Source: an uncultured Mordavella sp. (GTDB lineage Bacteria; Bacillota; Clostridia; Lachnospirales; Lachnospiraceae). From it: 49,597 nucleotides of DNA. The stretch lies in assembly GCA_902406105.1 (NCBI GenBank), contig CABPCP010000015.1, positions 1 through 49,597 on the forward strand. The letters are read 5' to 3'. Position numbers and translations under genes: made by a program. Positions 2,160 to 29,477 of the stretch are shown here, one piece after another (positions within the stretch are counted from its first letter, which is position 1; each line of letters begins with the position of its first letter). Under the pieces are notes generated by a model. The model did no database searches, was not told where the DNA came from, and was given only the letters and a program-made list of their open reading frames with translations.

Positions 2160-2330
2160 TCCTGCGATAGCGCTCCACGAATGTGACAGTCCGCGGCATC
2201 TTCTGCCGCGTCCCAGAGACAAGACCTGGAAACATCCCGTCTCTTCGGCGGACGCCCCTTTCCCCGCAAGACAGTCTTCCAAACTATCGCCTTCCAGATA
2301 CTGATGGCGGCCGCGCCTCTATCAAGCATT
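2160..2330 (-). promoter_or_regulatory. Lysine riboswitch (L box)
   Basis: Read on the minus strand, the leader has the L-box consensus blocks in order: GATAGAGGCGCGG near 2323, an AGTAT bulge near 2300, GGGGAAAGGGGCGTCCGCCGAAG near 2265-2243, CTGGGACGCGG near 2215, GGACTGTCAC near 2190 and the closing strand GTGGAGCGCTATC ending at 2166. GATAG and CTATC close the P1 helix, and the GCCGAAG and ACTGTCA blocks are the conserved core. The order and spacing match the B. subtilis lysC leader. The aptamer is followed by a terminator and then the NhaC-like carrier, so it probably lowers carrier expression when lysine is plentiful. Confidence 0.9.
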
Positions 2331-25534: not shown

Positions 25535-28108
25535 TTATTTGCGTCCGCAGCACTGTTTGTATTTCTTGCCGCTTCCGCAAGGACATGGATCATTTGGATA
25601 AATCTTCTTCTCCGCCCGTTTCTTTGGCGCTTTGGCTGCAGAGTCATCCTTATTGGTTCCCGTTACTTTGGCCACCTGTTCTCTTTCTACCTTCTGTTCG
25701 ATCCTTACATGGAACAATGTGCGCACAGTATCCTCTGTAATGCTCTTTGTCATCTCGCCGAACATATCGTATCCCAGCATCTTGTACTCGACTTTTGGAT
25801 CTCTCTGGCCATAAGCCTGCAGGCCGATTCCCTGTCTGAGCTGATCCATATCATCGATATGAGCCATCCATCTTGCGTCAATGACTTTCAGAAGGACTAC
25901 CCGCTCTACTTCTCTCAAATGTTCCGGCTCTGGGAACTCTGCTTCTTTTGCTTCATAAGCCTTTGCGGCCCGTTCCTTCAGAAGATGCTTCAGTTCTTTC
26001 TGGCTCATGTCCTTCACATCTTCTTCACTGATAAAGGGCATAGGGATCGTCTTGTGTATCGTCATGTTCAATTCTGTCAGATCCCAGTCCTCGCTGTCCT
26101 GATCTGAGGATATCATCATATCCACCGTATTCTCGATATAGTCATTGATCATGTGGAAGATAGAATCCCGCATGTTCTCTCCATCCAGAACCCGGCGTCT
26201 CTCTTCGTAAATGATCTCTCTTTGCTCATTCATTACCTGGTCGTACTCCAACAGGTTCTTACGGATGCCAAAGTTATTGCTCTCGATCTTCTGCTGCGCC
26301 TTCTCAATGGCGCTGGACAGCATCTTATGCTCAATCTGCTCTCCTTCTTCCACGCCCAGCGTATTGAAGATGCTCATCAGACGCTCTGAGCCGAACAGAC
26401 GCATAAGGTCATCCTCCAGAGAAATGTAGAATCTGGACTCTCCCGGATCCCCCTGACGGCCGGAACGTCCTCTGAGCTGGTTATCGATCCGACGGGACTC
26501 ATGCCGTTCTGTACCAATGATCTTCAGTCCTCCGGCCGCTCTCGCCTCATCGTCCAGCTTGATATCCGTACCACGTCCGGCCATATTTGTAGCGATCGTT
26601 ACCGCATCGTGCACGCCTGCCTGGGCAACGATCTCCGCCTCCATCTCATGGAACTTCGCGTTCAATACGTTATGTTTAATTCCGCGCCGCTTTAACATTC
26701 CGCTTAAAAGTTCTGAATTCTCAATGGTAATGGTACCTACCAACACTGGCTGGTGGTTTGCGTGCGCATCTTCAATGGCATCGCACACCGCCTTAAACTT
26801 CTCTTTCTGGGTCTTGTATACCGCATCTTCCAAATCCTTACGGATCACCGGCACATTGGTCGGAATCTCCACTACGTCCATGCCGTAGATCTCACGGAAT
26901 TCCTTTTCTTCCGTCAGGGCTGTACCTGTCATACCTGCTTTTTTCTCAAATTTATTAAAAAGATTCTGGAAGGTGATCGTAGCGAGAGTCTTGCTCTCCC
27001 GCTTTACCTTTACATGCTCTTTTGCCTCGATCGCCTGATGGAGACCGTCGGAATAACGCCGTCCCGGCATGATACGCCCGGTAAATTCATCTACGATCAG
27101 CACCTCGTCGTCCTTCACTACATAGTCCTGATCCCTGAACATCAGATTATGAGCCCGCAGCGCAAGAATAATATTGTGCTGGATCTCCAGGTTCTCCGGG
27201 TCTGCCAAGTTGTCGATATGGAAGAATTTCTCTACTTTCTTCACACCGTCTTCGGTCAGATTGATATTTTTCTCTTTCTCATTGACAATGAAATCTCCGG
27301 TCTCTTCGATCTCTTCGCCCATGATGGCGTTCATCTTGGAAAACTCTCCGCTGGCCTCTCCGCGTTCCAGCTGCCGGGCCAGGATATCGCAGGCCTCATA
27401 GAGTTTAGTAGATTTGCCGCTCTGTCCGGATATGATAAGAGGAGTTCTGGCTTCATCGATCAATACAGAGTCCACTTCATCGATGATGGCGTATTTCAGC
27501 CCTCTCTGCACCAGCTGCTCCTTATAGATCACCATGTTGTCTCTCAGATAGTCGAATCCAAGCTCATTGTTCGTCACATAAGTAATATCGCAATTATAAG
27601 CGGCACGGCGCTCATCACTGTCCATGCCGTTTAGGACTACTCCCACAGTCAGGCCCAGGAATTCATGAACCTGCCCCATCCACTGGGCGTCACGTTTCGC
27701 CAGATAGTCATTGACCGTTACAATATGGACGCCTTCGCCGGTCAGCGCATTTAAATAAGCAGGCAGTGTAGAAACAAGCGTCTTTCCTTCACCTGTCTTC
27801 ATCTCTGCGATACGTCCCTGATGAAGGATGATACCGCCCACCAGCTGAACCCGGTAGTGCTTCATTCCAAGAGTCCTGGACGCCGCCTCCCGAACAACCG
27901 CAAAAGCTTCCGGAAGAATATCATCCAGAGACTCTCCATCCGAAAGCCTTTTCTTAAATTCTCTGGTCTTTTCCTTAAGTTCGCCATCTGAGAGAGACTG
28001 CATTTCAGGTTCCATCGCCTCGATCGTATCTACGATAGGATAGATCCTTTTCAGTTCATTCTCACTATGCGTTCCAAAAATTTTCTCTATTAAACCCATG
28101 CTAGACAT
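25535..28108 (-). CDS. secA: Preprotein translocase ATPase SecA
   Basis: This is a complete SecA of 857 residues. It has Walker A in MKTGEGKT (about 105), Walker [15 protein letters not shown] (about 210), the helicase-like segments [11 protein letters not shown] and [12 protein letters not shown], and a C-terminal zinc-binding tail with [18 protein letters not shown]. SecA drives secretory proteins through SecYEG at the membrane. AAGGAG precedes the first ATG by only 3 nt, so the ATG three codons later (28099) is a possible alternative start. prfB follows directly, as commonly seen. Confidence 0.97.
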
Positions 28109-28529
28109 AAACTCCTTGTCATAAATTTAATCATTTTCCATTCTAGCACTAACTACCCCTCAATTCAAGCCGTTTACAAAGTGTTTACAATTCCACTCTT
28201 CCAACTCCGCCAAGCAGGGTGCCACGAGTAAACTCATGCTTGCATGAAGTTTCGAGTGGTATTCTGCTTGAGTGGAGCGCCTTCCTATGAGCAAAATCCC
28301 GGCATTTCTGCCGGGGCAAGCGTCGCAGACGCGGATTTTGCGAATGGCGCGTCGGAGTTGGCTCGGCGGCTCTGGGGCAATCACCATGCTTTCATGAAGT
28401 TTCGAGTGGTATTCTGCTTGAGTGGAGCGCCTTCCTATGAGCAAAATCCCGGCATTTCTGCCGGGGCAAGCGTCGCAGACGCGGATTTTGCGAATGGCGC
28501 GTCGGAGTTGGCGCCTCGGCTCTGGGCAC
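28109..28529. repeat. Gene-free interval with two tandem copies of a 150-bp structured element
   Basis: Positions 28235-28362 and 28385-28512 are the same 128 bases with one mismatch (28242 versus 28392), so the period is exactly 150 bp. Each copy can form a nested fold. In the first copy, GCGCC (28277-28281) pairs with GGCGC (28346-28350), and GCAAAATCC (28291-28299) pairs with GGATTTTGC (28333-28341). Inside are two adjoining hairpins, CGGCA-TTTC-TGCCG (28300-28313) and GCGTC-GCA-GACGC (28320-28332), forming a three-way junction. A further hairpin CATG-N4-CATG opens each copy and survives the mismatch. CCAACTCCG (28201-28209) can pair with CGGAGTTGG at the end of either copy. I recognise no known RNA family. 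Both strands are open through the repeat, which I attribute to the period being a multiple of three. It lies between a DUF3784 gene and secA. Confidence 0.85.
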
Positions 28530-28865
28530 CTACCGCTTTTTACAAACCGTATTCCCAAGGATCATCAGCACCAAAACGTCAAGAACAATGATCCCCACCG
28601 CTATGTAGGCAAACCAGGCAGGCAGCTGGTCTTCTAACGCTCCCATGACCAAGAGAAGAATGGTAATGACCGCCATTCCGCCTCCATATACCCTGCATAG
28701 CTTTTTCGCGTTATACTTTGCCTTCTCTTCCTTTGAAGCCGTATTGTATCCCGCGATCAGCCCGCTTCCGCGTCCAGACAGCAGGATGATGGAGATAAGG
28801 GCAAATAAAGCTGCCGCCGCCCATATGATCCAGTCGGGACCGTTAGACATATCCGATAATTTCAT
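28530..28865 (-). CDS. DUF3784 family small membrane protein
   Basis: The 111-residue protein has three hydrophobic segments (about 12-28, 55-75 and 80-103). Between the first two lies a conserved-looking stretch, GRGSGLIAGYNTASKEEKAKYN, which is the hallmark of the DUF3784 family of Firmicutes membrane proteins. Function is unknown. GGGGAAGGAAACG precedes the ATG. It reads toward the 150-bp tandem repeat and secA, whose transcript it could extend into, since no terminator separates them. Confidence 0.75.
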   Translation of the reverse strand: MKLSDMSNGPDWIIWAAAALFALISIILLSGRGSGLIAGYNTASKEEKAKYNAKKLCRVYGGGMAVITILLLVMGALEDQLPAWFAYIAVGIIVLDVLVLMILGNTVCKKR

Positions 28866-28946
28866 AAGCGTTTCCTTCCCCTTTATTCAACTAGGATTTA
28901 TTATCTCGTTTATCCTTGATACACAATATATTTTACAGGAAATGAT

Positions 28947-29477
28947 TCAAACACCGGCTTTCGATTTTTTCTTTGATTTGTGAAATACAATAATAGAAAT
29001 GATCACATCCGCGCAAAAAACAAATTGAAGAATACTGTAAAGAACCATTTCACCTGCTGATATAGCCTCATTATCGTAACTGCGTTTAACAGCAGATATA
29101 CCAATTAAACCGCTTAATATAATAGACATCACATCTAAAACCATCAGAATAACGGAAATCGCAAATGTAAAAATTGTAAGCATACATACAATTCCAAATA
29201 TAAAAATAAAAAGGTATGCTGGAATTGAAATTGTTTTAATCAACAAATTTACTCGGCACAATTCAACGAAATCCCATTTTCTTATCAAACTGGCCGCGCA
29301 AGTCGAAACCGCGCAAACGAAAGCCACTGCCCAAATGATAACTAATAGGATCAGACAGAGATAAGCATTGTTTTGAAAAATATTTTCCATTAGAAAACCG
29401 CTGAAAATACAGTACAGTACAAACGCAACGGCATACGGAAACAGTACTATACTTAACGTTGGCACAAACTTTTTCAT
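28947..29477 (-). CDS. Hypothetical multi-pass membrane protein
   Basis: I do not recognise this 176-residue protein with confidence; it may belong to DUF6652. It has about five hydrophobic segments (8-30, 40-60, 80-105, 105-125 and 145-165) and ends in a basic tail, FHKSKKKSKAGV. Its base composition is clearly more AT-rich than the neighbouring housekeeping genes, which suggests recent acquisition or weak constraint. AAGGGAGCAAATTT precedes the ATG. No transporter or enzyme motif is visible. Confidence 0.6.
   Translation of the reverse strand: MKKFVPTLSIVLFPYAVAFVLYCIFSGFLMENIFQNNAYLCLILLVIIWAVAFVCAVSTCAASLIRKWDFVELCRVNLLIKTISIPAYLFIFIFGIVCMLTIFTFAISVILMVLDVMSIILSGLIGISAVKRSYDNEAISAGEMVLYSILQFVFCADVIISIIVFHKSKKKSKAGV

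What the first reader, a model, noticed from the sequence alone, without database searches (positions are those of the whole stretch)
28235..28512. A 150-bp tandem repeat that folds into a nested, three-way-junction structure
The same 128 bases occur twice at an exact 150-bp period with one mismatch. Each copy contains an outer helix, a second helix GCAAAATCC/GGATTTTGC and two adjoining hairpins, with almost every base of the inner 51 bases in a helix. The one mismatch falls in the loop of a CATG-N4-CATG hairpin, so that structure is kept. CCAACTCCG at 28201-28209 can pair with the end of either copy, offering two alternative closures. I recognise no RNA family. It may be a structured RNA read with secA, a mobile palindromic element, or a multicopy intergenic repeat.
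Basis: partly seen in the sequence, partly recalled or inferred. Interest (0 to 1): 0.82.

Follow-up and report, generated by a model that had tools for sequence, protein, structure and literature searches.

The report
Mobile repeat carrying a structured RNA
The repeat is an old, partly doubled copy of a small jumping DNA element of gut bacteria whose inside is a divergent form of an RNA motif of unknown function (Clostridiales-1), which suggests that this motif spreads as cargo of transposable elements.

Summary
In detail: 128 bases recur at 150 bp with one mismatch and fold better than 200 shuffles. But the unit was mis-framed: the full element is 28201-28361 (161 bp, complementary ends), and the second copy is a partial tandem duplication absent from the nearest genome.

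Relatives occur in 69 of 299 sampled genomes of its bacterial family, up to 68 matches per genome. It is a divergent Clostridiales-1 RNA (RF01699): 25 bits over the full length against a cut-off of 48, bridged by two loci that a model from the window's genus found and that score 136 and 128 bits. In some relatives the copies are MITEs: termini GTAACAGTTCAGCC/GGCTGAACTGTTAC and 8-bp target duplications. A 1.8-kb IS66-family element with the same termini and duplications is the probable driver, though it was not found in two amplified genomes.

Helices covary and G.U exceeds A.C on the + strand, pointing to constraint on a + strand RNA. Function is unproven; hairpin-plus-T sites on both strands suggest a portable two-way terminator. 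The window copy itself has no target duplication.

The parts
28201..28361 (+). Full element (copy 1): divergent Clostridiales-1 RNA / decayed MITE copy
   Evidence: R1 155.3 bits, model 1-166 (the window sequence is one of the ten R1 was built from); RF01699 25.0 bits, 1-166, same strand, cut-off 48; one copy at the same place in G001, 158 of 161 identical
28201..28209 (+). 5' terminus CCAACTCCG, decayed counterpart of the terminal repeat; 5' strand of the closing helix
   Evidence: Sequence; alignment with relatives ending CCAGTTCCGCC or ACAGTTCAGCC
28353..28361 (+). 3' terminus CGGAGTTGG, complementary to 28201-28209
   Evidence: Sequence
28206..28276 (+). Long hairpin with conserved tip CATGCTTGCATG (28235-28246); stem sequence differs between relatives while pairing is kept
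   Evidence: Minimum-energy fold; covariation helices 1 and 2; G.U versus A.C test
28277..28352 (+). Core: GCGCC stem, TGAGCA...TGCGAA (28288-28344) with helix GCAAAATCC/GGATTTTGC and two hairpins (28298-28315, 28320-28332)
   Evidence: TGAG[CT]A followed by [CT]GAA within 20-90 bases in 132 of 148 elements of at least 140 bases
28385..28512 (+). Copy 2: partial tandem duplication (3' arm of the long hairpin, core, 3' terminus)
   Evidence: One mismatch of 128 to copy 1; absent from the orthologous place in G001; R1 77.3 bits at 28366-28511
28298..28315 (-). Terminator-like hairpin CCCGGCAGAAATGCCGGG followed by ATTTTGC on the - strand; repeated at 28448-28465 in copy 2
   Evidence: 3 terminator-like sites in 28050-28950 where shuffles give 1.0 (sd 1.1); two are these hairpins

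Best explanation
The feature is a decayed copy of a non-autonomous transposable element (MITE) whose interior is a divergent Clostridiales-1 RNA. Shown for relatives: short inverted termini, 8-bp target duplications, dozens of copies in some genomes, and a 1.8-kb IS66-family element with the same 14-bp termini and the same duplication length. Inferred: the IS66 transposase moves the MITE in trans. Shown: the helices covary, and isolated G.U pairs outnumber A.C on the + strand; inferred from that: the + strand acts as a single strand, most simply RNA. Inferred: the window copy inserted long ago between a DUF3784 gene and secA, lost its target duplication, and its 3' part was later duplicated in tandem. 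Inferred with modest confidence (about 0.35): the interior works as a portable two-way transcription stop (A-tract, GC hairpins, T-tract), which would make insertion next to genes tolerable.
For: RF01699 full-length matches: window 25.0 bits, 9 of 13 loci tested (best 44.4, genus member L027), 17 of 20 loci at the R1 position, and 136.1 and 127.8 bits for L236 and L237, which R1 had found. Copies: 18, 65, 68, 4 matches in four genomes. Target duplications: perfect 8-mers in 12 of 16 G257 and 14 of 20 G310 copies (18 of 20 at 7 or 8 of 8), mismatched pairs 1 of 240 and 6 of 380; 48 of 152 elements in 11 genomes, control 11 of 1352. Terminus GTAACAGTTCAGCC 10 to 114 times in each of 7 genomes, the reversed control word 0. 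IS66 element: right terminus exact in 21 of 26 loci examined, perfect 8-bp duplication in 14 of the 21 with both ends located; 494-aa protein, PF03050 73.6 bits. In G257 five of six flanking 8-mers of one end type equal those of the other. Covariation 17 of 37 pairs, 0 of 500 shuffles. G.U 73 against A.C 27. Terminator-like sites in 23 (+) and 29 (-) of 37 elements, shuffles 4.2 and 5.1.
Against: The window copy scores below the Rfam cut-off and no element of the window or of its genus shows an 8-bp duplication (0 of 25: window 2, G001 7, G002 11, G003 5). The PF03050 search found no IS66 gene in G310 or G100, two genomes with many fresh copies, and the protein search with the right clade found none there either; assemblies are fragmented, but the driver is not shown to be present wherever the MITE moved. 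Beyond the 14-bp terminus I saw no likeness between MITE and IS66 ends. G093 copies mostly lack duplications (2 of 20). The two highest-scoring RF01699 loci have other termini. In amplified genomes the G.U excess vanishes (22 to 17), and with one element per source it is only 21 to 9. T-tracts are short and are also half of a stem. No expression data.
Confidence: 0.8

Rival explanations
1. A genuine small-RNA gene (as Rfam types Clostridiales-1) that acts in trans and was merely picked up by a MITE in some lineages; the window copy is kept for its RNA.
For: Covariation and + strand bias; Rfam type 'Gene; sRNA' and 'probably RNA, not cis-regulatory' in the table of PMC2864571; the orthologous copies L003 and L024 differ at 32 of 161 positions and some hairpin changes keep pairing (read by eye); copy kept at the secA locus in G001.
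Against: Dozens of dispersed copies with target duplications; presence and absence differ between sister genomes at 4 of 7 sites tested; a rearranged element at the secA locus of G002; 230 of 299 family genomes gave no match (capped search).
Confidence: 0.25
2. Purely DNA-level palindromic repeat: covariation comes from template switching between hairpin arms during replication, with no RNA function.
For: The stem of the long hairpin is hypervariable yet paired; L004 and L009 share a left flank but have unlike stems; tandem partial copies fit replication slippage; no G.U excess in amplified genomes.
Against: Template switching predicts equal G.U and A.C, but 73 to 27 was seen (copies are not independent and most were chosen by a structure model); core unpaired or mismatched bases (TGAGCA...GCGAA) are conserved.
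Confidence: 0.12
3. Cis-regulatory leader of secA (riboswitch- or attenuator-like).
For: Lies 92 bases upstream of the secA start codon and is kept there in G001.
Against: The conserved strand is antisense to secA; promoter-like site between element and secA (not above chance); other copies beside other genes.
Confidence: 0.04

Closest known systems
Clostridiales-1 RNA (Rfam RF01699; PMC2864571, table row seen)
   Same: Full-length alignment on the same strand; closing helix, long hairpin with a UGCUUGCA tip, UGAGCA...UGCGAAU core
   Different: Window and genus members score below the cut-off; termini are of the AGTTCAGCC type instead of UGAU...AUCA; described there as a probable RNA; mobility not mentioned in the passages seen
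IS66-family insertion sequences
   Same: Transposase PF03050 above cut-off, termini starting GTAA, 8-bp duplications
   Different: Termini GTAACAGTTCAGCC, not GTAAGCG as quoted in PMC11946415 (passage); a single transposase ORF in the intact example; 1.8 kb
Bacillus cereus repeats bcr1-bcr3 (MITE-like) and bcr10/bcr18 (conserved RNA structure)
   Same: Intergenic repeats; bcr1-3 called MITE-like and often within UTRs; bcr10/18 with conserved structure (passages of PMC3446304)
   Different: In the passages seen, mobility and conserved RNA structure are assigned to different repeats; here both are in one element. Other sequence and host group

Membership tests
Clostridiales-1 RNA (RF01699) | Score at or above the curated cut-off (48 bits) | tested here: not met
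   Window 25.0 bits; genus best 44.4. So the window copy is called a divergent relative, not a member by Rfam's rule
Clostridiales-1 RNA (RF01699) | Homology over the whole model on one strand, bridged by accepted members | tested here: met
   1-166 of 166 on the + strand; R1 matches L236 and L237 score 136.1 and 127.8
MITE | Terminal inverted repeats, short, no gene | tested here: met
   Complementary ends in the window; 14-bp repeats in relatives; no Pfam hit in the two ORFs
MITE | Target-site duplication | tested here: not met
   Not met for the window (2 of 2 without) and its genus (0 of 23); met in 48 of 152 elements overall
MITE | Autonomous partner with the same termini | tested here: met
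   IS66 element with identical 14-bp termini; co-residence shown only in G257
IS66 family (the partner) | IS66 transposase domain and 8-bp duplication | tested here: met
   PF03050 73.6 bits, cut-off 23.1; 14 of 21
IS66 family (the partner) | Termini beginning GTAAGCG | tested here: not met
   GTAACAG; only GTAA is shared
Intrinsic terminator, bidirectional | GC hairpin followed by a T-tract on both strands | tested here: inconclusive
   Relaxed pattern in 23 (+) and 29 (-) of 37, shuffles 4.2 and 5.1, some of the hits at other hairpins; tracts mostly of 4-5 T that also belong to a stem
Riboswitch / secA leader | Lies within the transcript of the gene it controls | not testable with these tools
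   No RNA data; promoter-like site downstream of it

The most novel reading that the evidence does not exclude
The Clostridiales-1 core is a selfish structured-RNA module that rides on unrelated transposon ends: GTAACAGTTCAGCC (IS66 type) in many genomes, and TGAT-N4-GGGTCAAAAG in the two high-scoring RF01699 loci. Constraint on the + strand RNA in the spreading lineages would mean that the RNA itself aids spread or host tolerance, for instance as a portable terminator or by taking part in transposition.
Probability: 0.3. Interest if true: 0.8.

Novelty: new variant of a known kind. Interest (0 to 1): 0.62.

Why it matters
It gives an Rfam family of unknown function a mode of spread and, for one large branch, a candidate driver, and it warns that a covarying 'sRNA' family can be a mobile element. 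It also makes a question testable: why would a transposon keep a complex RNA fold that its transposase should not need?

Tried and rejected
Typical IS66 elements (ends GTAAGCGCC) as the driver: looked at and noted as rejected; this was reversed when the right clade appeared through contig ends of G257. L166 and L183 as autonomous elements: no transposase seen between matching ends. A transposase with DUF772 in L210 looked like the driver at first; it lies between IS66 pieces and was dropped. Exact scan of genome contigs for a 28-base word of the window: 0. Plasmids: no match; viral contigs: 0 and 1 stretch. Empty sites: of 7 sites queried, 4 lack the element in a sister genome, but one keeps a 13-nt remnant and the others are old and imprecise, so none is a clean pre-insertion site; for the other 3 no pair of flanks was found. 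First G.U/A.C count (90 against 122) went against the RNA reading; a constant bulge had been scored as A.C, and with a lower gap cost the count became 74 against 26. I changed the gap cost after seeing the first count; four settings are printed, of which the first (old gap cost) still gives 85 against 90 overall but 40 against 16 for pairs flanked by Watson-Crick pairs. Protein structure prediction, fold search and the search for homologous proteins were not used.

Full report
OBSERVATION. The repeat is real: 128 bases, period 150, one mismatch at 28242. The better unit is 28201-28361, bounded by CCAACTCCG and CGGAGTTGG. It folds better than each of 200 shuffles on either strand. The nearest held genome, G001 (89% of sampled 31-mers; the window's own assembly is not held), has one copy at this place and lacks the second. 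Tandem copies occur elsewhere too: L065 has four, L069 three, L003 a second partial one.

FAMILY. blastn at E <= 0.001 found relatives in 3 of 61 genomes, all of one genus. Ten near-full-length elements were aligned by sequence only. RNAalifold gave 37 pairs, 17 with two-sided changes; 0 of 500 column shuffles reach the observed values on any of five measures, and slid pairings fall to 32-50% paired cells (relatedness of the sequences is not controlled by the shuffles). A covariance model R1 gave 8, 16 and 9 matches in G001-G003 at E <= 0.1 (some weak or on the opposite strand of another match), matches in 69 of 299 family genomes at E <= 0.001 (nine candidates scored per genome), and 18, 65, 68 and 4 matches in G257, G310, G093 and G258 at E <= 0.001 (partial and opposite-strand matches included). 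In a phylum-wide sample 3 of 299 genomes matched at E <= 1e-6, all three of the same family (stricter filters). That the family is Lachnospiraceae is inferred: two G392 contigs have the lengths and sequence of records titled Lachnospiraceae bacterium.

RFAM. At the curated cut-off the window gives only a lysine riboswitch. With permissive settings RF01699 Clostridiales-1 matched, always over the full model and below the cut-off, 17 of 20 relatives at the R1 position at E <= 1 (a further match, L061 496-664, lies elsewhere; L049, L050 and the R1 place of L061 had none), the window at 25.0 bits, and 9 of 13 loci at E <= 5 (best 44.4 bits, some weaker than E = 1). Among 20 further loci 6 matched at E <= 0.01, two of them at 136.1 and 127.8 bits (L236, L237 of G005). 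R1 had found those two loci, so I treat the two families as one by descent.

MOBILITY. Flanks of 16 G257, 20 G310 and 20 G093 copies (one further G257 region, L115, was left out as not a full copy) show 8-bp direct repeats outside GTAACAGTTCAGCC...GGCTGAACTGTTAC: perfect in 12 of 16, 14 of 20 and 2 of 20; at 7 or 8 of 8 in 12, 18 and 2; mismatched-pair controls 1 of 240, 6 of 380, 1 of 380. Over 152 elements (155 less 3 repeats) from 39 genomes and the window, 48 reach 7 of 8, in 11 genomes; control 11 of 1352. The window and its genus show none (0 of 25). Three 43-bp copies in G093 are little more than the two termini; two have 8-bp repeats (8 and 7 of 8), the third does not (read by eye).

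DRIVER. In G257 thirteen contig ends carry the terminus followed by one of two other sequences. Their flanking 8-mers pair exactly in 5 of 6 cases, the sixth at 7 of 8, as for the two ends of one element. One end resembles the end of an IS66 transposase gene in G328. The G328 locus and the three other close matches to that gene fragment (74-91% identity; 11 of 397 genomes matched in all at E <= 1e-12) end in the exact terminus. A scan of named genomes gave 32 loci. I examined 26: the right terminus is exact in 21 and within two mismatches in 5; both ends were located in 21, exact on both sides in 17; 14 of the 21 have perfect 8-bp duplications. The intact example encodes one 494-aa protein with PF03050 at 73.6 bits. 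That IS66 has 8-bp repeats and GTAAGCG ends is from a passage of PMC11946415. Against the driver: PF03050 matched in 5 of 11 genomes and not in G310, G100, G082, G258, G001 or G002, and the clade-specific search lists no match in G310 or G100. Only one R1 match lies in the 32 IS66 loci, so co-residence is shown in G257 only.

STRAND. With pairs of the long hairpin scored neutrally, isolated G.U outnumber A.C 73 to 27 in 144 of the 152 elements; 51 to 10 in 77 elements outside G257, G310, G093, G006 and G100, and 22 to 17 in 67 inside them; by source 24 against 6 with 8 ties; with one best-paired element per source 21 to 9. Copies are not independent, and most were chosen by a structure model that favours G.U; the first ten were not. 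I read this as constraint on the + strand of the spreading lineages with near-neutral decay of single copies. Single-stranded DNA is not excluded, since G.T is also the better mismatch in DNA (recalled).

CONTEXT AND FUNCTION. Of 80 elements with long flanks (orthologues and tandem copies included), neighbours run <- <- in 40, -> -> in 20, <- -> in 14 and -> <- in 6 (crude ORF calls). Some begin within a few bases of a stop codon, which the terminus (gTAAc) can supply. In the window the neighbours are a DUF3784 gene and secA. A hairpin followed by a T-rich stretch was found in 23 (+) and 29 (-) of 37 elements, one per source, where shuffles give 4.2 and 5.1; some hits are at other hairpins, and the T-tract is also half of a stem, so a terminator is a guess. 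L236 and L237 have ends TGATACCAGGGTCAAAAG...CTTTTGACCCCAACATCA: the same core on other termini.

LITERATURE. I saw the table row and term passages of PMC2864571, term passages of PMC3446304 and of PMC11946415, and search listings only for the rest. None of these links Clostridiales-1 to a transposable element; subscription papers and supplements were not seen.

Noticed in passing
window 2160-2329 (-): Lysine riboswitch (RF00168, 101.9 bits).
   Followed up: no
L236 396 to about 606 and L237 396 to about 606 (G005): High-scoring Clostridiales-1 loci with another terminal repeat, TGAT-N4-GGGTCAAAAG, and possible short flanking repeats; perhaps a second MITE type with the same RNA core.
   Followed up: partly
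L204 1501-1694, L208 92-286 (G141): A different repeat of about 195 bp with the same GTAACAGTTCAGCC termini and another interior, i.e. further cargo types.
   Followed up: no
L008 (G002), about 1500-1710: At the secA locus of G002 a short element with GTAACAGTTCAGCC-like ends lies next to a remnant of the window-type element, as if one had inserted into the other.
   Followed up: partly
L004 (G001) and L009 (G003): Elements beside a similar left flank (247 of 295 aligned bases) but with unlike stem sequences in the long hairpin, as if replaced by another copy or evolving very fast.
   Followed up: no
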